Part shown: positions 18,776-35,785 of the stretch, in pieces
Layout: every line of letters starts with the position of its first letter
How positions within the stretch are numbered: the stretch's first letter is position 1
NCBI RefSeq assembly: GCF_001467625.1
Contig: NZ_LNYB01000085.1
Span: forward strand, 89,654 to 130,694
Source: Legionella feeleii
GTDB lineage: Bacteria; Pseudomonadota; Gammaproteobacteria; Legionellales; Legionellaceae
Length of the DNA stretch: 41,041 nt
Direction of reading: 5' to 3'
Position numbers and translations under genes: made by a program
Notes under the pieces: model-generated
What the model was told of the DNA's origin: nothing
Database searches by the model: none
The model's input: the letters and a program-made list of their open reading frames with translations, nothing else

Positions 18776-19124
18776 CCTGCTGAGCACGGACACCAGTGCT
18801 GCGCGCATCGAGGTCTTTACGACCAGCGCACACCCTGTGGCGCTTAATGGGGTAAAGGCTCAAGTCTGTGTGCTTGATGCACTCACCGACTTGACTGCGG
18901 CGTTAAACCGTCCTGGTGCGGCGATTGCCAAAGTGGGGCAGGTCGATTCGGTTCACAATGCGCGTCTGACTGCCTTTTATCGCTGCCAGGCGCAGGCAGG
19001 ACTGTATGGTCTGGCCTCGCTTCCCGCCATCGTTATTGACCGTACCTATGTAGCCTACGGTCTGCGGTCTGTGGATAAAGCCCTGATTGCAGGCCGACGT
19101 TATAGCGAGGTTCATCATGATTAA
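18684..19124 (+). CDS. ICE protein PFL_4709 type (TIGR03757), TraW-like
   Basis: 146 aa from ATG 18684, which has TGGAGGAAG upstream. An ATG at 18765 would give a 119-aa form with a weaker site. After a hydrophobic leader the mature part is 'ARIEVFTTSAHPVALNGVKAQVCVLDALTDL…', and the conserved 'YRCQAQAGLYGLASLPAIVIDRTYVAYGLRSVDKAL' matches the family. With the first start it overlaps traC by 92 nt. Periplasmic, in the TraW/TraU/TraH-like group involved in pilus processing and mating-pair stabilisation. Confidence 0.8.
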   Translation: MAYLKRQNLWLKALKTKTAAVLKRIFFMTISLLSTDTSAARIEVFTTSAHPVALNGVKAQVCVLDALTDLTAALNRPGAAIAKVGQVDSVHNARLTAFYRCQAQAGLYGLASLPAIVIDRTYVAYGLRSVDKALIAGRRYSEVHHD

Positions 19125-20118
19125 GTGGCTCCTCTACTCTGGCCTGCTTTTTTGCTCCATGACTGCGCTCGGCGTTGAAAGCACCCGACCGACAACGCCT
19201 GCCAGCACCCCTCAGATTGCCGCCAGAGTCTTCAAAAAAGGCATGGAAAACAGCCATTTTCGCATCATCGGCAGCTGCCTGTGGCTCGAAGGTCATTTTC
19301 CACCGAAAGTAACCCCAGGCCCCGCAGTCTCGCAGTTTATTCCTGATTTAATCGTGACCGTGTCCAATCACCCCGGTGAAAATCCCTGGGCTGAGGCGAA
19401 TGGGCTTTATGAAAACAAAGCGGCATTAGCCGCCTGGCAGTCCGCGTTTAAAGCAGCCTTAAACCTGCCTCTTGGCTTTGGCGATGGCAGTGGGCAGCTG
19501 GCCTCACAGCGCCTTAATGAAGACCGAACCCGCGTGGTCAGTGTCATCGGCTCGCCCTCTGCGGTCTATCCACTCAAAGGGGTAACCCATCGCCCGGAAA
19601 CCACGTTCATGAAACTGTATTACTCAAGCCTTGCGGATGCGGTGAATGAGAGGACGGAACTTGGCGAGCTCGCTTATATGGCAACGCATCCGCAGTTGTT
19701 AATCAATCATGAGATTGGCAGTGCGTCTTACTTTTGGGGTCATGAACTGCCTCGGTTAATGCGCATAACGCAACCCTCACGCTTTAGAGCCTCCGTCGTG
19801 GCGGCCATGCATGCGGCTGATATCGTAACCAACGAAGGCATGCACTTAAAAGTACCCACGACCAATGCCTGCGGCCCTCACTGCGTGGTCGCCAATGTGG
19901 TGTTTGACCCTAAGCAGAAGCAGGTTATCTGGCAGGAAGTCTACCCGAAAAACCGCAACATCATTCCAGGCGACAGCGCGGATGAGGGCATCGATGATGA
20001 GGCAAAAGGCAATGGCAATTATATCTTTGTGGTGTGGCGCAAATACAAGGGCTGTGTCACGCAGCCAGGTAAGCTCTTATGGGGAATGCCGCCTGTGGGC
20101 AGCCCTCAAAAACGATAG
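19117..20118 (+). CDS. ICE protein PFL_4710 type (TIGR03756), TraU-like
   Basis: 333 aa from ATG 19117, overlapping the preceding stop, with GCGAGG upstream. A signal peptide is followed by conserved 'GSCLWLEGHFPPKVTPGPAVSQFIPDLIVTVSNHPGENPW', 'NHEIGSASYFWGHELPRLMRI' and C-terminal 'NACGPHCVVANVVFDPKQKQVIWQEVYP…'. Multiple cysteines suit a periplasmic, disulphide-bonded TraU-like protein. Confidence 0.85.
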   Translation: MIKWLLYSGLLFCSMTALGVESTRPTTPASTPQIAARVFKKGMENSHFRIIGSCLWLEGHFPPKVTPGPAVSQFIPDLIVTVSNHPGENPWAEANGLYENKAALAAWQSAFKAALNLPLGFGDGSGQLASQRLNEDRTRVVSVIGSPSAVYPLKGVTHRPETTFMKLYYSSLADAVNERTELGELAYMATHPQLLINHEIGSASYFWGHELPRLMRITQPSRFRASVVAAMHAADIVTNEGMHLKVPTTNACGPHCVVANVVFDPKQKQVIWQEVYPKNRNIIPGDSADEGIDDEAKGNGNYIFVVWRKYKGCVTQPGKLLWGMPPVGSPQKR

Positions 20119-20127
20119 GAAGAAACA

Positions 20128-21522
20128 ATGAAATTACGTGCAGCGGCGTTTGGTGTTTTATTCAGCAGCGGGGTTTTGGCAGGGTCGCTCTTTCCAGAGC
20201 AGTCCGACTATTACTATCAATTAGGGAGTTCCTCGGATGTGTTCGTTCCACCGCTCAATCGCGACCAGACCGTGACCATTGAAGGGTTTATTCATGGAGG
20301 CGGGTTAAGCTGTAATTTATTCAATCCGGTCGTCTCTATTACCAACACCTTTCAGGATTTAAAAAACTCCGTCAATGGCATCCCCGCCGGGGTCATCGAT
20401 AATTTAAAAGGCTCGGTTGCAGGGTTCCCCATGTACAAGCTGCAACAGGCCATGCCGGGTCTTTATAATATTTTACAAAATGCCTCTGCCGGGGCGCAAA
20501 ATGAATTTGCCTTAAGAGTCGCTGATTGCCAGGAAACAAAGCGAGCACTTGAGGAGGGCAATTCTCCGATTAGCGGCATGCTGTCCATCTCCGATTCTCA
20601 GGGGTGGCTGGATGCGGCAAGGCGCGCTAAAAATGGCGAGGCTGTTGATATTTCAAAAGCGGCCAAAGACATTGCCAATAAGGGGGAAGAATACGGACTG
20701 CCTTGGCTGCATCGAGGCAAAGGCAATGCAGGCGGGAGTAAACAGGTTCCGATTAAAGTCATTAATGATGTCGTGATTGCAGGGTATAACGTGCTGCTGA
20801 GCTCATCACGCGCCCTTGATGATACCACCGCGGTTACCGATGAGACGCTTAAAAAAAATCGGTTCGTACAACGCTGGCCTGCCCCGGAGGATGCAGCCAA
20901 CTGGGCGGTTCTCGTGTTAGGCGATATTCAGGTGAGCCATAAAAAAGAGAAGGGCGCACACGATGCCCGTGCAGGCATTGGTCTATCCCCGCTACTTAAG
21001 AGTTGTCCTAAGCGTGCCAGCAGTTCCACCTGCGTGGCCAGTGTCAGTAAAACCCTGTGGAAACTGGTTGACAACGCGTTGCCGTTAACCGAGGAGAACC
21101 TGCGTAAAATCAGCGCGTCGAATGTGATGATTACCGATGAAATCATTACCGCCATTCAGCGTATGCCACGCGAGCAGCAAATCATCACAGTCGCCAAATT
21201 AGGCGAAGAGATTGCCATTCAAAACCTCTTGGAAGAAGCGATTATGTTACGCCATCTCTTACAGGCAGGCATGCAAATACAGGAAGTGCAAAATTTAAAA
21301 CCAGCGCATGACATGGTCAATTCAGCGCTTACTAAACTCGATAAGGAAATCCACTCCTTGGCCTTTGAAAGTGACGTTCGTAAAAAAATGATGACCCAGA
21401 CCTTAAATCTGATTATGGCCATACGCCGCCATGAGTTAGCGAAGGCCGTTCCTGGCAGCACGCATGAATCCAATCTGATTAAAAGCGGTGCGGTTTATCA
21501 AAACAGCGGCAAGAAGGAGTAG
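20128..21522 (+). CDS. ICE protein PFL_4711 type (TIGR03755), TraH-like
   Basis: 464 aa, signal peptide ending near GVLAGS. The family-typical opening is 'YYQLGSSSDVFVPPLNRDQTVTIEGFIHGGGLSCNLFNPVVSITNTFQDLKNSVNGIPAGVIDNLKGSVAGFPMYKLQQAMPGLYNILQNA'. The C-terminal half is helical (about 330-430). TraH-like proteins act with TraU/TraW in pilus extension and mating-pair formation. Confidence 0.85.
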   Translation: MKLRAAAFGVLFSSGVLAGSLFPEQSDYYYQLGSSSDVFVPPLNRDQTVTIEGFIHGGGLSCNLFNPVVSITNTFQDLKNSVNGIPAGVIDNLKGSVAGFPMYKLQQAMPGLYNILQNASAGAQNEFALRVADCQETKRALEEGNSPISGMLSISDSQGWLDAARRAKNGEAVDISKAAKDIANKGEEYGLPWLHRGKGNAGGSKQVPIKVINDVVIAGYNVLLSSSRALDDTTAVTDETLKKNRFVQRWPAPEDAANWAVLVLGDIQVSHKKEKGAHDARAGIGLSPLLKSCPKRASSSTCVASVSKTLWKLVDNALPLTEENLRKISASNVMITDEIITAIQRMPREQQIITVAKLGEEIAIQNLLEEAIMLRHLLQAGMQIQEVQNLKPAHDMVNSALTKLDKEIHSLAFESDVRKKMMTQTLNLIMAIRRHELAKAVPGSTHESNLIKSGAVYQNSGKKE

Positions 21523-21526
21523 CGCC

Positions 21527-23101
21527 ATGATTGTGTTCAGTCCCTTAGCGTTGTATACCACGTACCTCGGCTGGCAACAATACGATGTGCTGTTTGATGC
21601 CCTGTGGCAGACGGGGTTCTTATATCTTGGGTTTTTGATGGTGGGGTATCGCTATCTAAAAAACGTGCTGGCACCGGAAGGCTCGACCCATCATGCCGCA
21701 GAGCATGCACTCAACAGTTTTTTGTATGAACTGACCCTGACCTTCTTCATCTGCGCGATATTTGTCTACCCCTGCGTTCCTTTAGAACAAAAAGGCCTGT
21801 CATTTAAGCCGATGTGTACGATGAAAAAAGGCGCTGAGGTCAGTGAATCGCATATTAACAACACAGGAACGACTTATGATGAAGCCTTTGCCAACATACT
21901 GAGCAATCAGGTCAGAATGCCTATTGGCTTTGCACTTATACAAAACCTGTTTTCCAGTTTTAGCTATGGGCTTATGAAAGTTGCAGGATGTACTGACAGC
22001 CTCCAGTCAATCCAGGGCGATTTGATTTCAACCTACATTCCAGGGGCGCTGCGTCAGCAGGCCCTGCAGTTTCATCGCCAGTGCTTTTTAGAGGCACGTG
22101 GCAGTTATTTAAACGAGCCTCGCAGTGAGGCGGAACAGGAACAGATTAAAAAAATATTGAAGCGTCATGGTGGTGAGGACGATCTGAACTGGATGGGTTC
22201 TAAAACCTTCCGTACCTTTTATTACGGCAAATTAAGAGCAAGGGAACCAGTGCCCGGGTTCTCCTACAGTCAATACCCTAATTCCAATTTTGAGTCGGCA
22301 GCAAAAGAGGATGCATCGATTAAAAGCCACAAACCTGCCAATGGCTATCCAACCTGCAATCAATGGTGGGACAAAATTCAGGCTGACCTGGTGAAGGCAT
22401 CCGAACGGGCAGGGTATTTCGACAAACACATTGGCAGACTTGATGTCAGTAAACGGGTTCTTGATTACAAGGAAAAGCATCAGTCTGCCTGGAATTCTGA
22501 TTTAACCCCACAGGACTACATCGCCAAAGTCTTAATCCAGGACAACCGTGATTTGCAGGAACAAAGTGCTGAATCGCTGATGAATACCACCAACAGCAGC
22601 ATCGGAACCTCGCTTTCCCGCGGTCTTGTGAATATAGGGCAATCCGTTAAATCGTATACCTCGACGCCTTTAAAAAGAGAGGCCACCCTGCAGACCCTGC
22701 CGGTCATGCATGCATTCTTCACGTTTTTCCTGATTGTCTTTACCCCGCTTGTTCTTGCTTTAAGCGGTTACAGCCCGCGTGCTTTAGGCGCACTCTGCGG
22801 CTTGTATGTCATGGCGATTTTTGTGCAATGCATCTGGCATTACGTGGGCATTTTAGAGCGCAGCGTCATTGACCCCATGGGCGACAGTGATTTGGTCGCT
22901 GCCATGCGCAACATGGCCGTGCTTTTTTACTACGTCGCCCCTTTATTGCTTTTTAAATTATCCAGTCATTTTGGCGGGGATGCAGGGGCTGGGCTGGCGG
23001 GTCTAATTTCGTCTTCACAGAGTGCCGCAGAAACATCTGCTGATTCAGGAGAAAAGACTGCCAAAATAGGGCTTAAGGTTGCATCGCGGGGGATGTTATG
23101 A
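21527..23101 (+). CDS. traG: TraG-like inner-membrane protein
   Basis: 524 aa from ATG 21527 with AAGGAGTAG upstream. Membrane helices lie near the N-terminus (GWQQYDVLFDALWQTGFLYLGFLMVGY, LTLTFFICAIFVYPCVPL) and the C-terminus (about 415-490), around a large periplasmic part with conserved Cys (CTMKKG, CTDSLQ). It matches the TraG N-terminal family used in mating-pair stabilisation. GI-T4SS versions of this length lack the long C-terminal domain of F TraG. Confidence 0.85.
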   Translation: MIVFSPLALYTTYLGWQQYDVLFDALWQTGFLYLGFLMVGYRYLKNVLAPEGSTHHAAEHALNSFLYELTLTFFICAIFVYPCVPLEQKGLSFKPMCTMKKGAEVSESHINNTGTTYDEAFANILSNQVRMPIGFALIQNLFSSFSYGLMKVAGCTDSLQSIQGDLISTYIPGALRQQALQFHRQCFLEARGSYLNEPRSEAEQEQIKKILKRHGGEDDLNWMGSKTFRTFYYGKLRAREPVPGFSYSQYPNSNFESAAKEDASIKSHKPANGYPTCNQWWDKIQADLVKASERAGYFDKHIGRLDVSKRVLDYKEKHQSAWNSDLTPQDYIAKVLIQDNRDLQEQSAESLMNTTNSSIGTSLSRGLVNIGQSVKSYTSTPLKREATLQTLPVMHAFFTFFLIVFTPLVLALSGYSPRALGALCGLYVMAIFVQCIWHYVGILERSVIDPMGDSDLVAAMRNMAVLFYYVAPLLLFKLSSHFGGDAGAGLAGLISSSQSAAETSADSGEKTAKIGLKVASRGML

Positions 23102-23115
23102 GCGGGTTACTTCAA

Positions 23116-23325
23116 CTAATCATATCTTCTCGTAGCCTCCCGATAATCTTTAAGACTTATCTCTCCTTTATGGAAAAGCTCACGGGCATCCAATTCATTA
23201 TACCGTGGCGTTTTTTTGTCGAGGCCGGATATGGTTATCGCCGCATCAGCGACCAGCAAAGCTATCTTAAACAAACCCCAGGCCAGTTTCAGCACGCCTT
23301 TTGCGATGTTCAATGCAGTACTCAT
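23116..23325 (-). CDS. Small antisense-oriented membrane/SHOCT-like protein
   Basis: A 69-aa ORF on the opposite strand to the tra operon with a good start site (GGAG, 10 nt before ATG). The N-terminal half is an amphipathic/membrane helix (NIAKGVLKLAWGLFKIALLVADAAITISG). The C-terminal 'YNELDARELFHKGEISLKDYREATRRY' resembles the SHOCT helix hairpin ('L..L..L.e.G.It.eEye..K'). Many GI-T4SS clusters carry a small reverse-strand gene next to traG. I prefer it over the overlapping plus-strand ORF because of its start site and protein-like composition. Confidence 0.5.
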   Translation of the reverse strand: MSTALNIAKGVLKLAWGLFKIALLVADAAITISGLDKKTPRYNELDARELFHKGEISLKDYREATRRYD

Positions 23326-23339
23326 CAGGAGTCATCTCC

Positions 23340-23672
23340 ATGTTAAAAAAGTTCCTTAGACCTTCGATTATAGTAGTAATCCAATTGATTTTGCCAGTGA
23401 TTTTCATTGCCTGCATCACGCCATTTTTATTAAGAAATACGGACTCCCTGAATCAGTTTCGCCAGCTCGTTCAGCACTTCAAGTGGCCTTTACTCCTGAT
23501 TCATGTCCTTTTTTATGCAGCTCTCTATGGTGCATGGCCATTTTTAATCAACCTGCTGCGTCAAAAACACGCCTGTTCCCCTGATGAGGGGCAGCTGCGA
23601 TGTGCGCTGAATGTGCGGCTTTATTTAATTGGCGCCTTTGTCATTTTCGAAGTGTTAAATTTATTAAGGTAA
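23340..23672 (+). CDS. Three-helix membrane protein between traG and traD
   Basis: 110 aa from ATG 23340 (AGGAG at 23327-23331). Predicted helices: SIIVVIQLILPVIFIACITPFLL, PLLLIHVLFYAALYGAWPFLINLL and YLIGAFVIFEVLNLL. No motif recognised. It ends 4 nt before the traD ATG, so it may be a small inner-membrane partner of the coupling protein. Confidence 0.65.
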   Translation: MLKKFLRPSIIVVIQLILPVIFIACITPFLLRNTDSLNQFRQLVQHFKWPLLLIHVLFYAALYGAWPFLINLLRQKHACSPDEGQLRCALNVRLYLIGAFVIFEVLNLLR

Positions 23673-23676
23673 GACC

Positions 23677-26124
23677 ATGGCTAACCGATACCCTGTTGAA
23701 AATTTATTAAGAGAGCCCACGGAGATTTACTCTGCGCTGACCATTGGAGCACTCGCTCTTTTAGCGTACTGCCTGCCTCATGTGCTGTTATTAACCCAAA
23801 CCATGGGACTTTATGCGGCGGCAGGCTTAGGCGGGCTGGGTGGTTATCGTGCACTGCAGGCTTATCGCGTCATTCGCTATCAAAAACGGTTGATGGCAAT
23901 GCCTTATTATGCCATGTCGACCACTCAGGTTCCCCTGTCAAAACGCTGGCTTTTTGTAGGGCGCGGCTTTCGCTGGCTTCCCCGTCATACCCAGCGCCTT
24001 CATCAAATCAAACAGGTTGAAAATGAGCGTTTTTTACAACGAAACGCAATGCACCGCGCCGTCAGTGCTTTTTGTCAAAACCATGAAGCCACACGACTGG
24101 CTTCATGGCTTGGAAGTCCTTCCTGGTTAAACCCCTTTCGTCCCCTGCCTGACGTTGGCGGTAAACCCTATCTGCATGGGCTTGGTGACTGCGATAAGCC
24201 TGTTTATATCCCACAATCCATTCGTGTGGGACATACCTTTGTCGTAGGCACGACCCGAGTCGGAAAAACACGCCTGGCCAGCATTTTAATCAATCAGGAT
24301 ATCCGAAATGGAGATGCGGTGATTGTGGTTGATCCGAAAGGGGATCTGGAACTGGTCAGGGATATGTATTCCGCCTGCAAAGCCGCTCATCGCCTGGACG
24401 ATTTTCGTATTGTTCATTTAGGATTTCCAGAACTGTCTGCCTGCTACAACCCCTTAAAGAATTTTGACCAGGTGAGTGAGGTGGCCACACGCATCACGGA
24501 TGCGATTGCCGCTGAAGGGGAGGGCAAACAGTTTGCCGCCTTCGCCTGGAAATACATCAATATTGTAGCGATTTGTCTTGAGGAAATGCGCCAGCCCATT
24601 ACCTACAAAACCATCGCTTTTTATATCAGTCGTCTTGATCAATTACTCATGGCCTATGCTGACACCATTATGCCGTGTCGTGAGCCTGGGTATTTGAATG
24701 AGGTTGCATCAATCATTGCCGATAATGATGCGCGCGTCGATAAATACGGCAATCCTTATCCGCCAATGGACAGGGCAAAAGCGGTTGCACAATACTTTAA
24801 ACAATACATCTCCCACACCATTGCCCAGGGCAATGTGGAGTCGTTGCACGATCAGGTGATTATTGATTTATACGATGCAGCACGCATGGATAAAACCTAT
24901 TACGACAAAATTACTGCCAGTGTTGGACCGGTCTTATCCGAAATTAATAAAAGCAATGCCTCGGGTATTTTTTCGTTTCATCAGGCGAGGTCTGAAATTG
25001 AGTTGATGGCCTCTATTAAGCACAAAAAAGTCATCTATATCGGGCTTGACAGCTTAACCAACCCCAATATCGCCCAGGCGGTGGGTAAGGCTTTTTTGTC
25101 TGATTTAGTCTCTACTGCGGGGAAAATCTACAAAGAAAGCCATGCCAGTTACCGCTTGAATCTTCATTGTGACGAGCTGTCGGAAATCATCCAGGATTCC
25201 TTTGTAAAAATATTAAATAAGGCGGGTGGGGCTGGTTTCCAGGTCACCGCTTACGCCCAGACCAAGCAGGATTTAGAAGTGGCTTTAGGCTCTAAAGCCA
25301 TGGCCGAGGTTACGGAAGGAAACTTAAATACACTGATTATTCTGCGCCCAAAAAATGATGAGACGGCGAATCTGCTCATTAAGCTGCTGCCCACTGTCGA
25401 TGTGGTCTCGCATACCCAGGTCTCTATGGTGAGTGATACCCCACATGGTGAAGAAGGCGTTTTTTTCAATACGACCAATGAAGACCGCGTGCAAAAAAAC
25501 GCCATTGGCATGCTGGAGGTCAGCGACATTACCTCGTTGCCTAAAGGCCAGGCGTTTGTTCTGGTGAATGGCGGGGAATTGTATAAGGTTCGAATTCCTC
25601 TACCTCTCAATGATGGCCTTGCACCTGATGATATTAAAGAGGTTTTATGCGACATCAACAAACTCGAACAGCCCTTAACGCCTGCTGAAAGTCCAGACCT
25701 TACGCTTTGTCATCCGCTGCCAGAGGTTGACAAACCGGTTCAAGCGCCGTCAGAACCACGTCAGGAAGAGCCTAAACACACGCAGGCATCTCCAGAGATA
25801 GTGCCTGATTTCATTAAGTGGCTTGAACACCGCATGCATTCCGGTAACAAACAATTTTCATTGGACGCTCAGGAACTGGTTCTGCGACAAACACAGGCGC
25901 AAGACGACCATATCGTTTTTTTACTGCCTGAAGTGTTTGCTAAATACCAAAGTCGCTCCGGCGTTGAGACAGCGGTTTTAGAGTCTGCATTAACCGAATC
26001 CTTTGGTGAGTCAACCCGTTATTTTATCACCAAAGCAGGGCTGCAACAGGAGGTAGTGCCTTGTCGCTTAAGCCAACCCATCCGTACGGACTATTCTACT
26101 GACATTAAACAAGGAAACCCATAA
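23677..26124 (+). CDS. traD: Type IV coupling protein TraD (TOL/PFGI-1 type, TIGR03754)
   Basis: 815 aa. Two N-terminal membrane helices (about 20-60) precede a VirD4/TraD ATPase. Walker A is GTTRVGKT (191-198), an early acidic strand is VIVVDPKGD (D219), and Walker B is LHCDELSE (D499/E500). A Pro-rich linker and a C-terminal winged-helix-like domain follow after residue 670. It recruits the relaxosome to the T4SS. In the reference gene order it lies between PFL_4695 and PFL_4697; here it is downstream of traG. Overlaps the next gene by 1 nt. Confidence 0.92.
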   Translation: MANRYPVENLLREPTEIYSALTIGALALLAYCLPHVLLLTQTMGLYAAAGLGGLGGYRALQAYRVIRYQKRLMAMPYYAMSTTQVPLSKRWLFVGRGFRWLPRHTQRLHQIKQVENERFLQRNAMHRAVSAFCQNHEATRLASWLGSPSWLNPFRPLPDVGGKPYLHGLGDCDKPVYIPQSIRVGHTFVVGTTRVGKTRLASILINQDIRNGDAVIVVDPKGDLELVRDMYSACKAAHRLDDFRIVHLGFPELSACYNPLKNFDQVSEVATRITDAIAAEGEGKQFAAFAWKYINIVAICLEEMRQPITYKTIAFYISRLDQLLMAYADTIMPCREPGYLNEVASIIADNDARVDKYGNPYPPMDRAKAVAQYFKQYISHTIAQGNVESLHDQVIIDLYDAARMDKTYYDKITASVGPVLSEINKSNASGIFSFHQARSEIELMASIKHKKVIYIGLDSLTNPNIAQAVGKAFLSDLVSTAGKIYKESHASYRLNLHCDELSEIIQDSFVKILNKAGGAGFQVTAYAQTKQDLEVALGSKAMAEVTEGNLNTLIILRPKNDETANLLIKLLPTVDVVSHTQVSMVSDTPHGEEGVFFNTTNEDRVQKNAIGMLEVSDITSLPKGQAFVLVNGGELYKVRIPLPLNDGLAPDDIKEVLCDINKLEQPLTPAESPDLTLCHPLPEVDKPVQAPSEPRQEEPKHTQASPEIVPDFIKWLEHRMHSGNKQFSLDAQELVLRQTQAQDDHIVFLLPEVFAKYQSRSGVETAVLESALTESFGESTRYFITKAGLQQEVVPCRLSQPIRTDYSTDIKQGNP

Positions 26125-26849
26125 TGACCACTACAATCAAACTGACGTTACGTAATCATGAGGTGAATCGTCTCTTTACCCGTGAGCTAAAAAACGGCGT
26201 GAATTTTTATGAAAAACTCATGGGCAAGGTTGCACGGTTAACCAAGTGCTGCCAGGAGCAGCGTGTTTATGCCGTCCTAAGCCTTCATCAAATGAATGAA
26301 TCCATTCATGCCATCATCCAAAAATTTTATGATGACATTGATAAGTTTGAAGGAATACTGGAGAAGAAAAAACATTTGGCCGGGAAAACAATCACCTGCC
26401 AGCCCGTGCACTTTCCGGAAGTACGCTTTGACAGCGCACTGGCCGCAAGCCTGGTGGAGCTTTTTGAAGTCTACGATCGCCTCATCTCGCTTCTTAAAAC
26501 CTTAAGAACAGCGGGATGCTTTAACAATGATGATGATTACTTCAACAATTTAAGGCGCTATTTTAAAGCGGTGAATCGTCTTTTAAGCGCCCTTTTATTA
26601 AGCGCTGTGAAAGAGCTGCCCTCGATGACATTCGAGGAGATGATTAATCAGGATGAGTCTTGTCCACACCCTGCCACACAGCATGGCGCGATGGATTACG
26701 CCCTCCTTGTTAAGGCACTGACCTCCAATGTCGCACCAAGGCTTGAAGAAAAACGACGGCAGCCGCTGCTGTCTTTTTTAAACAGGCGACTACAGGCGGA
26801 TAGCAAGCCTGCGAGCAATCAACCGTCAGAGGAACGGGGTAGCGCATGA
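26124..26849 (+). CDS. DUF1845/PFL_4669-like ICE protein (tentative)
   Basis: 241 aa, soluble and helical. The pattern 'KLTLRNHEVNRLFTRE', 'VYAVLSLHQMNESIH', then 'VHFPEVRFDSALAASLVELFEVYDRLISLLKTLRTAGCFNNDDDYFNNLRRYFKAVNRLLSALL' recalls the PFL_4669 (TIGR03761)/DUF1845 family, which sits next to topB in PFGI-1-type elements. The position fits (overlaps topB by ATGA). Function unknown; some relatives are called AcaB-like regulators. Confidence 0.5.
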   Translation: MTTTIKLTLRNHEVNRLFTRELKNGVNFYEKLMGKVARLTKCCQEQRVYAVLSLHQMNESIHAIIQKFYDDIDKFEGILEKKKHLAGKTITCQPVHFPEVRFDSALAASLVELFEVYDRLISLLKTLRTAGCFNNDDDYFNNLRRYFKAVNRLLSALLLSAVKELPSMTFEEMINQDESCPHPATQHGAMDYALLVKALTSNVAPRLEEKRRQPLLSFLNRRLQADSKPASNQPSEERGSA

Positions 26850-28723
26850 AATTGTTTATTTGCGAAAAGCCTTCTCAGGCGAAAGACATTGCGGCAGTTC
26901 TTGGGGCTAAGACCAGAACCCAATCCTGTTTTGAAGGATCAGGTATCGCTGTCACCTGGTGCATTGGCCATTTACTGGAACTCATGCCGCCCGACTACTA
27001 TTGCGAACACTTAAAACCCTGGCGGATGGCGGTTTTACCGGTTGTGCCTAAACAGTGGGTTTTAAAGCCGCAGGAAAAAACAAAAAAACAACTCAAAGCC
27101 ATTGAGCAGCTGTTAAAAAAAGCAACCTCGGTGGTGATTGCTACGGATGCTGACCGCGAAGGCGATGTCATTGGCCGTGAGGTATTGGATTACTTTCATT
27201 ATAGAGGGCCTGTTGAGCGGTTATGGCTGTCGGCTCTCGACGAGTCGTCCATTCAAAAAGCCCTGAGCGCCATTCGTCCTGGCAGCTCTACCGAATCGCT
27301 CTATCAGGCAGGACTTGGCAGGGCGCGTGCCGATTGGTTGATTGGCATGAATTTAACCATGGCAGCAAGCTGCCTGTTCGGTGCTCCTGGTCAGGGTGTG
27401 TTGTCTGTGGGAAGGGTACAAACGCCAACCCTTAAGCTGGTTGTAGAGAGGGATTTGAGTATTGAGGACTTTAAGCCCTGCGATTATTTTGTGCTGAAAG
27501 TGCAGTGGCTCTCAATGACGAATGACTTATTCTGGACGACCTGGGAGATGCCTGAGGCGGTGACCGATCCCGAAGGGCGATGCATTAATCAATCATTGAT
27601 TGATAGTGTCGCTCAGTGCATCAAAGGCCAGACGGGGGTTGTTAAAGAGTACAGGGAAGTACAAAAAAAAGAAGCGCCTCCTTTATGTCTGTCGTTATCC
27701 GCCCTGCAAAAACAGGCCTCAGTGAAATGGGGTTTCAGTGCCAGAGAAACCCTTGATGCCGCTCAGTCTTTATATGAAAAGCACAAAGCAACCACCTACC
27801 CCAGAACCGATTGCGGCTATCTTCCTGTCAGCCAGTTTGCAGAGGCAGCAACGGTGTTAAAAGCGCTTGTGAAGGTCGATAAGGACATCGACTCCTTAAT
27901 CGCCCTGTGCTCCCCGCAACATCGGTCAAGAGTATGGAATGATAAAAAAATGACAGCCCACCACGGCATTATTCCAACAGCCAATGCGCAGGTAGCACTG
28001 CAGGCCATGACCATGCAGGAACGCCAACTCTACGAACTCATACGAGCCTGTTATCTGGCACAGTTTCTTGGTGATTATGAGTTTTTACATCGTGAGGCGG
28101 TGATTGCGGCTGAAGGGCATCTCTTTAAAGGTTCAAGCAGGACCCCCTTAGTTTCCGGCTGGAAAAAAGCGATTAGCGAGAGTGAGAATAATGACGCATC
28201 AGACGAGCCTCCCAATCAAGACCATGGCCCCATTCCCCAATTAAGCGAAGGGCATGCTGTAACAGTAACAACGACGCAAAAAGACAGTAGAAAAACCAAA
28301 CCGGCTCCCCGTTTCACAGAAGGAACGCTGATAAGCGCCATGAAATCGATTGCCAGCCATGTGGAAAACCCACAGCTTAAAAAGATTTTGAAAGAAACAG
28401 CAGGCATCGGCACCGAAGCCACACGAGCCAATATTTTAGAAACGTTAATTAACAGAGAATACATCAAACGTCAGGGCAGGCAACTTATCTCGACACAAAA
28501 AGGGCGCTCTCTTATCGAGAAATTACCGGCCAGCATTACCAATCCGGCTACCACGGCACTCTGGGAGCAGGTACTGGATGACATTGCCCAGGGCACCAGG
28601 GCGATTGATGATTTTCTCGATGACCAGTCCGACCTGCTTGCAGGCATACTCGAACAATTGGCGGCACAGGGGAAAAAGCCCATACAGCCTGGTAATGAAC
28701 AACCCATTGATCTAAGGAATTAA
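26846..28723 (+). CDS. topB: DNA topoisomerase III
   Basis: 625 aa type IA topoisomerase. The TOPRIM domain has E7 (CEKPSQA) and the acidic triad DADRE (D101, D103, E105). The active-site tyrosine is Y318 in TTYPRTD, and the 'GIGTEATRANILETL' signature is present near the C-terminus. It unlinks single-stranded DNA intermediates during replication or transfer. There is no C-terminal Zn-finger; a separate zinc-finger protein is encoded 0.65 kb downstream. Overlaps the preceding gene by ATGA. Confidence 0.93.
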   Translation: MKLFICEKPSQAKDIAAVLGAKTRTQSCFEGSGIAVTWCIGHLLELMPPDYYCEHLKPWRMAVLPVVPKQWVLKPQEKTKKQLKAIEQLLKKATSVVIATDADREGDVIGREVLDYFHYRGPVERLWLSALDESSIQKALSAIRPGSSTESLYQAGLGRARADWLIGMNLTMAASCLFGAPGQGVLSVGRVQTPTLKLVVERDLSIEDFKPCDYFVLKVQWLSMTNDLFWTTWEMPEAVTDPEGRCINQSLIDSVAQCIKGQTGVVKEYREVQKKEAPPLCLSLSALQKQASVKWGFSARETLDAAQSLYEKHKATTYPRTDCGYLPVSQFAEAATVLKALVKVDKDIDSLIALCSPQHRSRVWNDKKMTAHHGIIPTANAQVALQAMTMQERQLYELIRACYLAQFLGDYEFLHREAVIAAEGHLFKGSSRTPLVSGWKKAISESENNDASDEPPNQDHGPIPQLSEGHAVTVTTTQKDSRKTKPAPRFTEGTLISAMKSIASHVENPQLKKILKETAGIGTEATRANILETLINREYIKRQGRQLISTQKGRSLIEKLPASITNPATTALWEQVLDDIAQGTRAIDDFLDDQSDLLAGILEQLAAQGKKPIQPGNEQPIDLRN

Positions 28724-31666: not shown

Positions 31667-31669
31667 GGC

Positions 31670-31715
31670 CATTCGCTGCGTCACTGGCTTTTTACTGCCA
31701 GTGACGCAGCGAATG
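31670..31715. repeat. Perfect 19-bp inverted repeat with 8-nt loop
   Basis: Left arm 31670-31688 starts CATTCGCTGCG; right arm 31697-31715; loop TTTTTACT. All 19 pairs match. Strong enough to extrude as a cruciform or fold as ssDNA/RNA. It could be a terminator (T-rich loop but no tail), a protein-binding palindrome or a transfer-related site. Confidence 0.75.
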
Positions 31716-31728
31716 GCTGCATCAAACA

Positions 31729-31763
31729 ACAGACTTTACAAGGGATATCCTTGTAAAGTCTGT
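31729..31763. repeat. Perfect 15-bp inverted repeat with 5-nt centre
   Basis: Arms ACAGACTTTACAAGG (31729-31743) and CCTTGTAAAGTCTGT (31749-31763) flank GATAT. It shares AGTCTGT with the 12-bp repeat at 31572-31603. It lies 14 bp after the 19-bp palindrome. Confidence 0.75.
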
Positions 31764-31846: not shown

Positions 31847-31875
31847 TTGTGAGGCATGCATGCCTTTGCTACACT
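31847..31875 (+). promoter_or_regulatory. Predicted promoter directly before hammerhead 1
   Basis: TTGTGA (31847-31852) and TACACT (31870-31875), each 4/6 to consensus, have a 17-bp spacer. Transcription would begin near 31882, two bases before stem I of the ribozyme. Confidence 0.4.
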
Positions 31876-31883
31876 CATTTCCA

Positions 31884-31937
31884 CACAACTGATGATTCCG
31901 TGCAATCCGGATGAAACCAGGAACACCTGGTCTTGTG
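31884..31937 (+). ncRNA. Hammerhead ribozyme 1
   Basis: All parts of a hammerhead with open stem I are in order. Stem I: CACAA (31884-31888) with TTGTG (31933-31937). Core: CTGATGA (31889-31895). Stem II: TCCG/CGGA (31897-31900/31908-31911), 7-nt loop. Core: GAAA (31913-31916). Stem III: CCAGG/CCTGG (31917-31921/31926-31930). Then T31931 pairs with A31916, and C31932 is the cleavage-site base. Predicted cleavage is between 31932 and 31933. The base pair next to CUGAUGA/GAAA in stem II is U·U rather than the usual G-C, a possible weakness. Confidence 0.8.
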
Positions 31938-31941
31938 AATT

Positions 31942-31987
31942 GCTGCCCTAATTCCCAAATCACCGCAGCTGAACGTTTAGTCGGGAA
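31942..31987 (+). ncRNA. Conserved pseudoknot after hammerhead 1
   Basis: GCTGC/GCAGC (31942-31946/31965-31969) is interleaved with TTCCC/GGGAA (31952-31956/31983-31987), an H-type pseudoknot. The same fold follows hammerhead 2, where the first stem is GCTAC/GTAGC, a compensatory G-to-A/C-to-T change. The single-stranded parts CCCTAATTCCC and CGTTTAGTC are identical in both copies. It would form the 5' end region of the cleaved RNA. Confidence 0.65.
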
Positions 31988-32014
31988 CCATAACTAACCT
32001 GTTTACTCAGGACC

Positions 32015-32044
32015 AAAAAATTAACCGCAGATTTTTTACGGTTA
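32015..32044 (+). promoter_or_regulatory. Pseudoknot-type fold PK2
   Basis: AAAAAAT/ATTTTTT (32015-32021/32031-32037) is interleaved with TAACCG/CGGTTA (32022-32027/32039-32044). A further hairpin CAACAGG-ACT-CCTGTTG follows at 32053-32069. The two stems may be alternative rather than simultaneous, as the connecting loop is only 1 nt. Confidence 0.4.
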
Positions 32045-32065
32045 GTCACTAACAACAGGACTCCT

Positions 32066-32075
32066 GTTGACCTTT
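32066..32075 (+). repeat. GTTGACCTTT direct repeat, three copies (32066, 32176, 32549)
   Basis: The copies at 32176 and 32549 share TTGACCTTTNAACCAG; the first matches over its first 10 bases. They lie in the leader before, and just after, the 78-aa ORF. Role unknown. The 32076-32304 stretch otherwise shows only short stems (for example CTTGC/GCAAG) and no gene. Confidence 0.35.
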
Positions 32076-32304
32076 CATAATCAACACCTTGCCTTGCAAG
32101 TCGTTGAACCCATTGAACTATCGATGATGACTTTTTTATCTATTGATTTTTCGAATAAAACTTTGACTGTTAAGCGTTGACCTTTGAACCAGTGAGACTT
32201 TGGTGTTGTAAATCAATACCTTGGTTTTTTGATGGTTTTACCTGTGAAATGCTGCCTTTAATGACTGCATTTTTTTTATTTTAACACCTTAAACTGGAGA
32301 ACTT

Positions 32305-32541
32305 GTGAACAATTCCGTCCGTGATATCAGCCACCAGGAAACGCTATCTGTTATTGATGAGCTTAAAGACAAAAAAGACTATTTATTAACTCAGGAGAAT
32401 TTTGAACGATTAATGCAAGTACAAAAATCCGTAGAACAAGCAACTGAAATGCGACCGACCTTTAAAAAACTGATCAATAGCTTAGTGACTGAAGACGCTT
32501 TGACTGATTTAACAGAGCGGTTGATTAAACAAATGGCGTAA
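32305..32541 (+). CDS. 78-aa helical protein, first gene of the recombinase unit
   Basis: GTG start at 32305 with CTGGAGA upstream. The product is fully helical (ISHQETLSVIDELKDKKDYLLTQENFERLMQVQKS … LINSLVTEDALTDLTERLIKQMA) with no recognised motif. It lies in the same direction as the two recombinase homologues and downstream of hammerhead 1, so it may be an accessory or directionality factor (inference). Confidence 0.55.
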   Translation: MNNSVRDISHQETLSVIDELKDKKDYLLTQENFERLMQVQKSVEQATEMRPTFKKLINSLVTEDALTDLTERLIKQMA

Positions 32542-32553
32542 TCGAAACATTGA

Positions 32554-32715
32554 CCTTTAAACCAGAAACCCAATAAGGAGAATAAGACTTTAGAACAAAC
32601 TGCGGTATCGATTAAAGAAGTAACTACGGGTTTACCCCCGAATCGAGCCTTGTGGCCCTTGCCAAGCATCATGTATATGAGCTGCTCGAATAACACTAAA
32701 CACAATCCTGGGTAA
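32554..32715 (+). pseudogene. Start-less short reading frame
   Basis: An open frame follows TGA 32551 and runs to TAA 32713. It reads 'ENKTLEQTAVSIKEVTTGLPPNRALWPLPSI…' after an AAGGAG-like site (32575-32580), with TTA where a TTG start might be expected. The translation looks protein-like, but there is no normal start codon at the right distance. Possibly a decayed small gene, or start loss. Confidence 0.3.
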
Positions 32716-32745
32716 ACGTAGTGACATTATCAGGAACTTAAGCCA

Positions 32746-33555
32746 ATGAGCAGAAAACAAAAACTAACCAAAACCATGGTTCAATATCTGAAACAGGACA
32801 ATCAGGGATCATTAAACACAAGGCAGGTTCGCCTTTTTGCGATGAATCGAATCATTAACGATTTATTTGTAGCGCGGACAGCGCCCATAACCTGGTATGC
32901 ACTCACAACAGAGCATATTAAAAAGTTAGTAAATTACTGGCACGATAAAGGATTAAAAGCGGCAACCATTATGAATTATCTGGTTTGTCTGCGCTATTTT
33001 TTAAATAAAATTAACCACACGATAGAGGGTATAGATAATCAATCCTTGCGTCTTGTAAAATTACGAAACAATAAAAGACCAGAAATTCATAGCGACACTG
33101 TTTTAAGCGCAATCAACGAGCCCATTGCTTATCTGTTATTCGCGTTACAAGCCAAATTTGGTCTCACACTCCTTGAATCCATGTTTCTTGTACCAGCCAT
33201 CCACATTCATGAAAACGAACTCTGGATTACCAGAGAAATCAGTACCAATCGTAAAGATCGCCTAATCCCCATTATCAGCGAAGAGCAACAAACAATCATT
33301 AGCAGATTAGTCACCCTGACAGATTACAAAAAGAGCCTGCATCAACAGTTTGGTGAACATCATTTACGCCTTGCGTATAAATTTGCATTAAGTACCTTAA
33401 AACTACCGACTCAGGTGAACTATCGATATTTATACGCTAAATCACGTTTTGATAATTTATGTATAAACCACAGCAGACAAGAAGCAAAAAAAATAGTGAT
33501 TAAGGAAACAAATATTAATAAAACCAGTCCTCTTTGGAGCACAATCCATGAGTAA
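32746..33555 (+). CDS. Catalytically degenerate tyrosine-recombinase homologue
   Basis: 269 aa. The N-terminal core-binding region (GSLNTRQVRLFAMNRIINDLF … LTTEHIKKLVNYWHDKGLKAATIMNYLVCLRYFLNKI) is clearly homologous to residues 22-90 of the next protein. The catalytic region is altered: the first Arg motif FGFRREES is FGLTLLES; HGLRH is gone; the terminal Tyr is missing; only an NHSR remnant survives. It probably binds DNA and the active partner without cutting. It overlaps the next gene by 8 nt. Confidence 0.7.
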   Translation: MSRKQKLTKTMVQYLKQDNQGSLNTRQVRLFAMNRIINDLFVARTAPITWYALTTEHIKKLVNYWHDKGLKAATIMNYLVCLRYFLNKINHTIEGIDNQSLRLVKLRNNKRPEIHSDTVLSAINEPIAYLLFALQAKFGLTLLESMFLVPAIHIHENELWITREISTNRKDRLIPIISEEQQTIISRLVTLTDYKKSLHQQFGEHHLRLAYKFALSTLKLPTQVNYRYLYAKSRFDNLCINHSRQEAKKIVIKETNINKTSPLWSTIHE

Positions 33556-34447
33556 AACAAAATTAAGAAGTGCTACGTATTCCATTCATAATCTGGTGAA
33601 ACAGATGAAGATCTCCTCCTTCAATACTCGCGCCGATACGCGTGTCATGCTGGTTCGTTGCATTAAGGACCTACATAGTATCGGCTTTAAAGTAGGGCAT
33701 ATCAAAGGAATTAAAGAGCGGCATGTCCATGCCTTAATAGCGCATTGGAAAAGCCAGGGGAAAAATCCAGCCACCATTAAAAATTACATGGCCAAACTGC
33801 GTAAAATGGCAATACAACTCGGCACTCCAGAACTGATTAAATCAGAAAACAGGGCTTATCAAATTGAAAGTCGCACTCACATCCCCTCAGTCAATAAAGC
33901 CATTACTGATATTGATTTTTCACAGTGCAAAGACGCTCACATACGCTTATCGCTTGAAGGGCAGGCATTATTTGGATTTAGACGTGAAGAATCCCTTAAA
34001 TTTACCTTAAGTGAGGCTTATGAAAGAAACCATCTTAATATCAAACCCAGCTGGACCAAGGGTGGGATAGGCCGGATTATTAAAATAAGAACTGATGAGC
34101 AGCGCCAATGGCTTCATCGAGTCAGCCAGCTGGTTCGTCCTGGACAATCGTTGATACCACCAGAGAAGTCCTATAAAGAACAGGTTGGCCACTATAAAAC
34201 GATTACAGAACAGTTAGGTCTCTCGAATTTACATGGCCTTCGTCATGCCTATGCACAGCGTCGTTATCACGAACTGACCTGCTGGTTTGATGACAACAAA
34301 AAAGGGCTTTTGCCACCAATTGCCGGAGGAAAACCGTTTAAAGAATTGTCACCCAAAGAACGGGACTGGGACATGCGTGCCAGACAGATTATATCGAGAG
34401 AATTAGGCCACTCCCGCCTGTCCATAACTAAAATTTACATAGGGTGA
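33548..34447 (+). CDS. Tyrosine recombinase of the integrase_1 type, intact
   Basis: 299 aa. A SAM-like N-terminal domain (about 20-95) is followed by a catalytic domain with R145 (FGFRREES), K171 (WTKGG), H229-GL-R232 (LHGLRH), H288 (RELGHSR) and Y297 (TKIYIG), two residues from the end. This matches the Phage_integr_N/Integrase_1 family found on gammaproteobacterial islands. It is translated with the degenerate homologue, and hammerhead 2 lies 67 nt after its stop. It could move the flanked unit or help the ICE. Confidence 0.85.
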   Translation: MSKTKLRSATYSIHNLVKQMKISSFNTRADTRVMLVRCIKDLHSIGFKVGHIKGIKERHVHALIAHWKSQGKNPATIKNYMAKLRKMAIQLGTPELIKSENRAYQIESRTHIPSVNKAITDIDFSQCKDAHIRLSLEGQALFGFRREESLKFTLSEAYERNHLNIKPSWTKGGIGRIIKIRTDEQRQWLHRVSQLVRPGQSLIPPEKSYKEQVGHYKTITEQLGLSNLHGLRHAYAQRRYHELTCWFDDNKKGLLPPIAGGKPFKELSPKERDWDMRARQIISRELGHSRLSITKIYIG

Positions 34448-34495
34448 TCTGGCTGTTTTTGCTTGAATTTTATGGTTTATTGCCGCAATTCTTAG

Positions 34496-34501
34496 TATAA
34501 T
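34496..34501 (+). promoter_or_regulatory. TATAAT -10 candidate before hammerhead 2
   Basis: A consensus -10 would start RNA near 34508, 7 nt before stem I of hammerhead 2, mirroring the arrangement at copy 1. No convincing -35 is visible. Confidence 0.3.
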
Positions 34502-34514
34502 AATCTTCAAATAA

Positions 34515-34568
34515 AACGACTGATGAATCCGTGAAACTCGGAAGAAACCAACAAACGCTGGTCTCGTT
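34515..34568 (+). ncRNA. Hammerhead ribozyme 2
   Basis: Same order as copy 1. Stem I: AACGA/TCGTT (34515-34519/34564-34568), differing from copy 1 on both sides so pairing is kept. Core: CTGATGA (34520-34526). Stem II: TCCG/CGGA (34528-34531/34539-34542). Core: GAAA (34544-34547). Stem III: CCA/TGG (34548-34550/34559-34561) with 8-nt loop. T34562 pairs with A34547; C34563 is the cleavage base (cut between 34563 and 34564). The stem II closing position is A·A. Stem III is short, so activity needs testing. Confidence 0.78.
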
Positions 34569-34573
34569 AAATT

Positions 34574-34620
34574 GCTACCCTAATTCCCCAGTCATCGTAG
34601 CTGAGCGTTTAGTCGGGAAT
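34574..34620 (+). ncRNA. Conserved pseudoknot after hammerhead 2
   Basis: GCTAC/GTAGC (34574-34578/34597-34601) interleaves with ATTCCC/GGGAAT (34583-34588/34615-34620). It is the second copy of the fold at 31942-31987, with covariation in the first stem and identical core single strands. Confidence 0.65.
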
Positions 34621-35359: not shown

Positions 35360-35785
35360 ATGGCAGTATTAAACAAAGTCCAATTGATAGGCCATGTCGG
35401 GCATTCACCTAAAACGACTCAAACAAGGGAAAATCATCCTGTTGCCTCCGTGTCACTGGCCACGAATGAATCCTATCGCAGGAATGATGAGTGGGAGACG
35501 GTGACCGAATGGCATAGCCTGGTGTTTTTTGGGAAATTAGCGAATTTTGCTGTGGAGCGCCTGCAAAAAGGCAGCCAGATTTATATTGAAGGCAAACTGC
35601 GTTCAAATAGCTGGACTGATGCTGAGGGTGTGAAGCGGCAATCATTCAATATTGTGGTGCAATCCATTCAGTTGCTTGATAGCGCCAGACTAAAAGAACT
35701 ACCAGAACAGACTGACAAACCAACAGCAGAGGAGTATTTAACGCAAATGCACTCGCTTCTGGAATGTGATGACGTTCCCTTTTAA
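35360..35785 (+). CDS. ssb: Single-stranded DNA-binding protein
   Basis: 141 aa OB-fold protein: 'LNKVQLIGHVGHSPKTTQT…PVASVSLATNESYRRN…TEWHSLVFFGKLANFAVERLQKGSQIYIEGKLRSNSWTDAEGVKR'. The acidic tail ends DDVPF, the partner-docking tip. It is shorter than chromosomal SSB and has a reduced linker. ICE/plasmid SSBs coat incoming single strands and are often expressed early in the recipient. Preceded by PK5, followed by PK6. Confidence 0.93.
   Translation: MAVLNKVQLIGHVGHSPKTTQTRENHPVASVSLATNESYRRNDEWETVTEWHSLVFFGKLANFAVERLQKGSQIYIEGKLRSNSWTDAEGVKRQSFNIVVQSIQLLDSARLKELPEQTDKPTAEEYLTQMHSLLECDDVPF

What the first reader, a model, noticed from the sequence alone, without database searches (positions are those of the whole stretch)
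31884..34620. Two direct hammerhead-pseudoknot cassettes flank a three-gene recombinase unit
Seen: two related ~105-nt cassettes in direct orientation enclose a 78-aa gene, a catalytically dead recombinase homologue and an intact tyrosine recombinase. Predicted cut sites are 2,631 nt apart. Established: eukaryotic retrozymes also carry hammerheads in direct terminal repeats, releasing unit-length RNA. Inference: a transcript across the unit could be cut at both ends to a defined RNA, or the cassettes may be the ends or targets of a mobile unit moved by its own recombinase. I know of no described bacterial element of this form, but cannot check.
Basis: partly seen in the sequence, partly recalled or inferred. 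Interest (0 to 1): 0.93.

Follow-up and report, generated by a model that had tools for sequence, protein, structure and literature searches.

The report
Self-cutting RNA leaders of ICE operons
In mobile DNA of Legionella relatives, two neighbouring operons each seem to begin with a promoter followed at once by a self-cutting RNA and a knotted RNA fold, which gives a testable idea of what such ribozymes do in bacteria; the pair does not look like the two ends of a new jumping element.

Summary
In detail: two direct hammerhead-plus-pseudoknot cassettes, predicted cuts 2,631 nt apart, enclose a 78-aa gene, an inactive-looking recombinase homologue (TR1) and an intact one (TR2), inside an integrative conjugative element of the Legionella group. 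The "unit" reading is weak. In relatives the composite is a promoter-proximal leader: in 66 of 67 cassettes, and 36 of 36 further ones, the best sigma70-like promoter lies so that transcription would begin about where the hammerhead begins. Of the 67, 31 lead TR1(/TR2), 30 an ssb/ArdA-type operon, 6 neither. First cassette to TR2 is nearly constant; TR2 to second cassette runs 54-7,765 nt. The two are mostly separate lineages (mixed in the window's own group), and each occurs without the other. Covariation supports hammerhead and pseudoknot; Rfam's RAGATH-32 begins with the pseudoknot's 3' half. Likely mechanism (inferred, cleavage untested): the ribozyme trims about 50 nt, leaving mRNA with a 5'-OH and a terminal pseudoknot. 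Hammerheads flanking genes, near integrases and before Legionella ardA were reported in 2011; the composite, its place at the predicted start and the paired leaders seem new.

The parts
31847..31875 (+). Predicted promoter of cassette A: TTGTGA (31847-31852), 17-nt spacer, TACACT (31870-31875), preceded by TG
   Evidence: Best-scoring -35/-10 pair of the 70 nt upstream, at the place shared by 66 of 67 cassettes; 8 of 12 consensus letters, so the strict scan does not list it
31884..31937 (+). Cassette A, type I hammerhead; predicted cut after 31932
   Evidence: R1 match 31880-31988, 97 bits; covariation over 73 cassettes; U.U at 10.1-11.1
31942..31987 (+). Cassette A, H-type pseudoknot: GCUGC/GCAGC and UUCCC/GGGAA
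   Evidence: 3' half resembles the start of RAGATH-32 (17.5 bits, below the 41.8 cut-off)
32305..32541 (+). 78-aa ORF of unknown function
   Evidence: relatives in the same place in L036, L037, L038, L044 and L069; no curated Pfam cut-off reached
32626..32717 (+). RAGATH-13 RNA just before TR1
   Evidence: RF02688, 85.7 bits, cut-off 80; also in 9 of 10 related loci scanned
32746..33555 (+). TR1, tyrosine-recombinase homologue that lost catalytic residues
33548..34447 (+). TR2, tyrosine recombinase with catalytic residues kept; the gene ends two codons after the tyrosine
   Evidence: Pfam PF12834 and PF12835 over cut-off; residues
34473..34501 (+). Predicted promoter of cassette B: poor -35 (TGGTTT), 17-nt spacer, TATAAT (34496-34501)
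   Evidence: not listed by the strict scan
34515..34568 (+). Cassette B, type I hammerhead; predicted cut after 34563
   Evidence: R1 match 34511-34620, 89.3 bits; A.A at 10.1-11.1, so it may be slow or inactive
34574..34619 (+). Cassette B, H-type pseudoknot: GCUAC/GUAGC and UUCCC/GGGAA
   Evidence: RAGATH-32 16.3 bits, below cut-off
35360..35785 (+). ssb, in the operon behind cassette B
   Evidence: Pfam SSB 103.9 bits; relatives of the operon behind B in many loci
15980..28723 (+). Conjugation genes of the surrounding ICE (TraC-type ATPase, TIGR03755 protein, TraD, topoisomerase III)
   Evidence: TIGR03744 612 bits, TIGR03755 396, TIGR03754 849, topB 644, all over cut-off; ends of the ICE not mapped

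Best explanation
Each cassette is the 5' leader of the operon behind it: a sigma70-type promoter, a type I hammerhead that begins within a few nt of the predicted transcription start, an H-type pseudoknot, more leader (with RAGATH-13 in the recombinase operon), then the genes. Cassette A leads the TR1/TR2 operon; cassette B leads the neighbouring ssb operon (ssb and often ArdA) of the ICE. Proposed mechanism: the nascent RNA folds and cuts itself about 50-56 nt from its start, so the mRNA loses its 5' triphosphate and begins with a 5' hydroxyl and the conserved pseudoknot. That end probably sets mRNA stability or is read by a shared factor. Shown by sequence comparison: structures, promoter position, gene linkage. 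Inferred: cleavage, start sites, effect on the mRNA.
For: Covariation in all three hammerhead stems and both pseudoknot helices over 73 cassettes; the second pseudoknot helix was not in the model used to align them. Full hammerhead core in 68 of 73. Promoter in the fixed place in 66 of 67 cassettes, shuffles mean 14.9 and at most 23 of 67; 36 of 36 further cassettes; still 35 of 36 when upstream stretches 60% or more identical are reduced to one. 31 of 67 lead TR1(/TR2), 30 lead c3/c11/c32/ssb/ArdA genes, 6 neither, counted within 1.8 kb on the same strand; further cassettes 28, 6 and 2 of 36. A-to-TR2 spacing 1,083-1,130 nt in 24 loci and 1,516-1,585 nt in three with the 78-aa gene; TR2-to-B spacing 54-7,765 nt. 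L057 has lost the hammerhead and joined its promoter to an intact pseudoknot before open TR1 and TR2. Two distant genomes repeat the pattern: L124 before TR1/TR2-like genes (TR2 there in two pieces), L123 before an ArdA-like gene.
Against: No cleavage and no start site was measured. The window's promoters are weak by consensus and the strict scan misses them. Three false cassette matches inside a coding gene also had a best 'promoter' in the same interval (they are relatives of one another). Sequences are related, so counts are not independent. No Rfam hammerhead family reaches its cut-off. Window copies carry mispairs at 10.1-11.1, a ground for rejection in Perreault et al. (passage). A and B mix in the tree of the window's own lineage, so they are not fully separate. 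L051:5033 has a broken core yet stands before TR1/TR2.
Confidence: 0.7

Rival explanations
1. The two hammerheads cut one long transcript into a defined 2,631-nt RNA, linear or circular, in the manner of retrozymes or of the tandem hammerheads of Perreault et al.
For: Direct orientation and both cores intact; no terminator-like site found between TR2 and cassette B in the window; retrozyme repeats also hold a promoter and a hammerhead (PMC12029980, passages); tandem hammerheads of other bacteria were active on long transcripts (PMC3088659, passages).
Against: TR2-to-B distance 54-7,765 nt, with cargo on either strand; each cassette has its own promoter-like sequence; in L048 and L052 a strong hairpin lies between TR2 or cargo and B (-28.2 and -18.9 kcal/mol); 5 of 28 loci have A but no B within reach, 3 of the 6 without B because the contig ends within 3 kb.
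Confidence: 0.1
2. The cassettes are the ends or recombination sites of a mobile unit moved by TR2.
For: Recombinase between two direct, related sequences; A and B of one locus group together in L069 and L056, so they exchange sequence now and then; up to five cassettes lie within about 19 kb in G786.
Against: Lengths not conserved; A leads TR1 without TR2 nearby in 18 of 28 further cassettes and in L074, L075 and L077; B without a unit in front in L177; upstream boxes of A and B never swapped: ACAAAAT type 19 of 31 A and 0 of 30 B, TTCATTT type 0 of 31 A and 13 of 30 B; inserts sit at the TR2 stop codon. No circle or excision product could be searched for.
Confidence: 0.05
3. The pseudoknot and promoter are what matters and the hammerhead is dispensable or relic.
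For: L057 keeps promoter and pseudoknot without the hammerhead; 5 of 73 lack the full core; mispairs in the window copies.
Against: 68 of 73 full cores with compensatory changes in all three stems point to selection for the hammerhead. The first cassette set was found with a pattern that requires a core, which favours intact ones; R1 searches do not require it.
Confidence: 0.12

Closest known systems
Bacterial hammerheads of Perreault et al. 2011 (PMC3088659; passages read)
   Same: Hammerheads in mobile DNA, near integrases, some flanking single genes or short gene blocks; one directly before ardA in three Legionella strains, very probably this paper's view of cassette B
   Different: No pseudoknot behind the hammerhead, no promoter at its foot and no paired leaders appear in the passages I saw; their pseudoknot joins stems I and II inside the ribozyme
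RAGATH-32 (RF02922) and RAGATH-13 (RF02688), Rfam 15
   Same: RAGATH-32 over cut-off in 7 of 10 related loci and 14 of 56 genomes, its 19 over-cut-off places all overlapping R1 matches; RAGATH-13 over cut-off in the window and 9 of 10 loci
   Different: RAGATH-32 as modelled starts at the 3' half of the pseudoknot and has no pairs there; the hammerhead and the 5' half are not part of it
Retrozymes
   Same: Two direct copies of promoter plus hammerhead around a body (PMC12029980, passages)
   Different: Not near-identical repeats, body length not fixed, protein genes and a conjugative element instead of a retroelement; no circular RNA known
ICEs with TIGR03744/03754/03755 conjugation genes
   Same: Conjugation genes, topoisomerase III and ssb
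   Different: Ribozyme leaders of this form are not known to me for them (recall; searches)

Membership tests
Hammerhead ribozyme, type I | Conserved core CUGANGA, GAA, A15.1-U16.1, H17 | tested here: met
   Both window copies and 68 of 73 cassettes
Hammerhead ribozyme, type I | Three helices kept by compensatory change, stem I open | tested here: met
   Helices 1-3: 91.8, 95.5 and 98.2% of cells paired, with double changes in each
Hammerhead ribozyme, type I | Standard pair at 10.1-11.1 | tested here: not met
   Window copies U.U and A.A; standard in 62 of 73 by the counts (GC 43, GU 12, AU 7)
Hammerhead ribozyme, type I | Score over an Rfam hammerhead cut-off | tested here: not met
   Best 13.5 bits for window B, none listed for window A; 16.2 and 13.2 bits for L062
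Hammerhead ribozyme, type I | Self-cleavage | not testable with these tools
   Needs a bench test
RAGATH-32 | Score over the family cut-off | tested here: not met
   Window A 17.5 and B 16.3 bits, cut-off 41.8; met in 7 of 10 related loci
RAGATH-13 | Score over the family cut-off | tested here: met
   85.7 bits, cut-off 80
Retrozyme | Near-identical direct terminal repeats with hammerheads | tested here: not met
   88% over 50 nt only; A and B mostly in different clades
Retrozyme | Primer-binding site, polypurine tract, circular RNA | not tested
   Not searched; circular RNA needs RNA data
Mobile unit moved by its own recombinase | Conserved ends with occupied and empty sites at the cassettes | tested here: not met
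   Unit length varies, inserts sit at the TR2 stop codon, no A/B hybrid boxes
ICE with TIGR03744/03754/03755 genes | Signature conjugation proteins over cut-off | tested here: met
   612, 849 and 396 bits
ICE with TIGR03744/03754/03755 genes | Integrase at one end and attachment sites | not tested
   Ends not mapped

The most novel reading that the evidence does not exclude
A new kind of 5'-end switch: a promoter fires straight into a hammerhead whose job is to replace the triphosphate end by a 5'-OH followed by a conserved pseudoknot. A shared factor or ligand then reads that end and controls together the recombinase operon and the ssb/ArdA operon of an ICE. The pseudoknot may also stand in for a stem I loop, which a ribozyme starting at +1 cannot have, and dock on the conserved loop II.
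Probability: 0.35. Interest if true: 0.78.

Novelty: new variant of a known kind. Interest (0 to 1): 0.6.

Why it matters
What bacterial hammerheads do has been open since they were found near integrases and phage genes. Here many diverged examples share one anatomy (promoter, ribozyme at the predicted +1, pseudoknot, operon), so one concrete function, remaking the 5' end of the mRNA, can be tested by mapping 5' ends. It also reads an orphan Rfam family (RAGATH-32) as part of a larger element and ties two ICE operons to one leader design.

Tried and rejected
Unit-length RNA and mobile-unit readings were tested by spacing, lineage, upstream boxes and gene linkage and put second. Recombinase-captured cargo as the reason for the second cassette: cargo between TR2 and B varies (phosphotransferase, acetyltransferase and Schlafen-helicase families, and a three-recombinase element). 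In one ICE group it starts at the TR2 stop codon, so it does not make B an end. Relatives of TR2 on plasmids of other genera (122 records): 5 of these records outside Legionella were fetched and gave no R1 match, 2 Legionella records gave two each. Viral contigs with one long exact pattern: nothing, a weak test. Plasmid DNA search with cassette A: one Legionella record. Single-sequence folding was uninformative. TATAAT averages without a -35 were too blunt.

Papers: searches listed no description of this arrangement; the library lacks most subscription journals, and the papers that named the RAGATH motifs are recalled, not read. Passages only were seen of PMC3088659, PMC3414803, PMC8138268, PMC10085705, PMC8191799 and PMC12029980; other papers only as listings.

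Rows dropped: one search used a loosened pattern and gave 39 matches new to the set; 3 lie inside a coding gene, begin TTGA and are false; the strict pattern leaves 36. Ten repeats of the first set were skipped. Some of the 40 regions have the contig lengths of records already seen, so the further set is not wholly independent of the first, and its regions were chosen among the best R1 scores. The 28 loci are matches of 240 residues or more at 50% identity or more; fragments and the 40% match in G049 were left out. The structure counted on A2 was drawn by me from the sequences. One search counts L111_370 as ssb-type although an unrelated 165-aa ORF comes first.
Full report
WHAT IS THERE. The two cassettes, their direct orientation and the 2,631-nt distance between predicted cuts are as reported. 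Each holds a type I hammerhead followed by a conserved stretch that folds as an H-type pseudoknot. Between them are a 78-aa gene, TR1 (a tyrosine-recombinase homologue that lost catalytic residues) and TR2 (intact). RAGATH-13 lies just before TR1. The window is part of an integrative conjugative element: TIGR03744, TIGR03754 and TIGR03755 proteins lie upstream, ssb downstream of the second cassette. It belongs to the Legionella group: TR2 relatives of 92-93% identity are in L. waltersii, L. bononiensis, L. moravica and a Legionella metagenome-assembled genome.

IS THE RNA REAL. One sequence alone does not show it: minimum-energy folds miss the hammerhead and the best Rfam hammerhead scores are 13-16 bits against cut-offs of 48-56. 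Relatives do. A model, R1, was built from 35 cassettes with the hammerhead and the first pseudoknot helix only. Over the 73 cassettes it found in 48 sources, 95.1% of pair cells are standard pairs, against 82.1% in shuffles and 31-45% when partners are slid; 230 cells are changed on both sides against 58.5 in shuffles. The second pseudoknot helix was not in the model, yet each of its 5 pairs shows a double change, few for four of them (1, 1, 1, 7 and 2 cells). The full hammerhead core is kept in 68 of 73. The window copies are not the best: U.U and A.A stand at 10.1-11.1, so cassette B in particular may be slow or inactive.

WHERE IT OCCURS. R1 finds cassettes in 20 of 56 relatives, 82 of 140 genomes of the family, 6 of 369 of a class sample, three of these outside the family, and 1 of 398 of a phylum sample, the window's own. 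These searches use strict filters that lose weak matches. Two distant genomes repeat the anatomy: in L124 the cassette precedes TR1/TR2-like genes (TR2 in two pieces), in L123 an ArdA-like gene; both have a promoter-like sequence in the usual place by eye.

WHAT IT LEADS. Of 67 distinct cassettes in the first set, 31 stand upstream of TR1(/TR2), 30 upstream of c3, c11, c32, ssb or ArdA genes, and 6 of neither, within 1.8 kb on the same strand (ArdA by Pfam). In the window lineage B leads ssb without ArdA close by. One of the six 'neither' is a third cassette of the window's own genome, which keeps RAGATH-13, has no TR1 match, and is followed by a group II intron match. In 36 further cassettes the numbers are 28, 6 and 2, and 18 of the 28 list no TR2 within 1.8 kb. 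Of 28 loci with a long TR2 match, 27 have cassette A upstream, 24 at 1,083-1,130 nt and three, of the type with the 78-aa gene, at 1,516-1,585 nt; 22 have B downstream at 54-7,765 nt; of the 6 without B, 3 run out of contig within 3 kb; 22 of the 71 cassettes are not beside a long TR2 match. So A is fixed to the TR operon and B is not.

THE PROMOTER. Scoring all -35/-10 combinations in the 70 nt upstream, the best has its -10 starting 18-26 nt before the hammerhead core in 66 of 67 cassettes; dinucleotide shuffles give 14.9 on average and 23 at most in 100 runs. All 36 further cassettes agree, and with upstream stretches 60% or more identical reduced to one, 35 of 36 representatives do. With the usual 7 nt from -10 to start (recalled), transcription would begin within a few nt of stem I. 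The window's two promoters are weak by consensus and a strict scan does not list them; the argument rests on position across the family. A and B carry different boxes further upstream: ACAAAAT type 19 of 31 A and 0 of 30 B; TTCATTT type 0 of 31 A and 13 of 30 B.

HOW IT PROBABLY WORKS. RNA polymerase starts at the foot of stem I; once the hammerhead is made it can cut (window: after 31932 and 34563), removing roughly 50-56 nt. Hammerhead chemistry (established, recalled) leaves a 5'-OH on the downstream product, which here begins with a few nt and then the pseudoknot. L057 has lost the hammerhead and brought the promoter next to an intact pseudoknot while TR1 and TR2 stay open, as expected if the ribozyme serves to put the pseudoknot at the mRNA end; it is one case. 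Whether that end protects the mRNA, is bound by a factor, or helps the ribozyme fold is inference. ssb and ArdA are typical of genes needed soon after conjugative entry (recalled), so control of establishment is a fair guess.

A bounded mobile or unit-RNA element predicts like ends, a conserved length and joint presence. The tree (106 columns for 67 rows, many forks open) has one supported clade of 25 A and 5 unassigned cassettes (97/87) and several B clades; A needs 9 changes and B 7, against 22 in shuffles. In the window's own lineage A and B mix, and L069's two copies are sisters (100/100), so the copies sometimes homogenise. TR1 without TR2 is common behind A, and L177 has B before c11/ssb/ArdA with TR1 on the other strand. 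Empty and occupied sites exist beside TR2, but at its stop codon: L052-L054 are empty, L048 carries about 0.8 kb, L050 about 3.5 kb with three recombinase genes and inverted repeats. That element fits the published description of RIT elements, around 3,500 bp with a 28-9 bp inverted repeat (PMC3414803, passages). It explains cargo, not cassettes. A read-through RNA cut twice remains possible in the window, where no terminator-like site was found after TR2.

KNOWN AND NEW. Perreault et al. 2011 reported bacterial hammerheads near integrases, tandem hammerheads flanking genes with cleavage shown for other species, and a hammerhead directly before ardA in three Legionella strains (PMC3088659, passages); cassette B is very probably of that kind. 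RAGATH-32 and RAGATH-13 are Rfam families that lie in the same leader. What I did not find in print is the composite of promoter, hammerhead and pseudoknot, the reading of RAGATH-32 as its 3' part, and its use as paired leaders of the recombinase and ssb/ArdA operons. I file it as a new variant of a known kind. Confidence is high for the anatomy, moderate for cleavage at the mRNA start, low for the effect downstream.

Noticed in passing
L050 (about 2.95-6.61 kb, - strand) and L055 (about 8.35-11.9 kb), both genome G008: A three-recombinase (RIT-like) element with inverted repeats (1 and 2 mismatches in 32) sits at the catalytic-tyrosine/stop codons of two different TR2 alleles; L052-L054 show the empty site. 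This would give RIT elements a precise target.
   Followed up: partly
L048 8640-9430: A 0.8-kb insert at the same TR2 position, with ends that resemble the RIT-like inverted repeats and one 139-aa ORF.
   Followed up: partly
Between TR2 and cassette B in L061, L062, L065, L070 and L126: Variable cargo of phosphotransferase (APH) and acetyltransferase (GNAT) families, like the genes often met in resistance modules; function unknown.
   Followed up: no
window 31668-31717 and 31729-31763: Two perfect hairpins (21 and 15 bp arms) stand in a row shortly upstream of cassette A.
   Followed up: no
window 32172-32192 and 32545-32565: A 21-nt direct repeat (86%) on either side of the 78-aa gene.
   Followed up: no
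L106 8717-9468 (G000:C80): A third cassette in the window's own genome keeps hammerhead, pseudoknot and RAGATH-13 but has no TR1 match, and a group II intron match follows.
   Followed up: partly
L111 361-1469: Two cassettes 1 kb apart with a single 165-aa ORF between them, after a TR2 C-terminal piece and before c3/ssb.
   Followed up: no
G786:C1 2623207-2642441 (L173, L174): Five cassettes on one strand within about 19 kb, with two TR1/TR2 pairs: probably stacked elements.
   Followed up: partly
L074, L075, L077, L177: TR1 alone, without TR2, beside a gene pair on the other strand whose larger member is a DUF927 protein in L077; the inactive-looking recombinase is kept without its active partner.
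   Followed up: no
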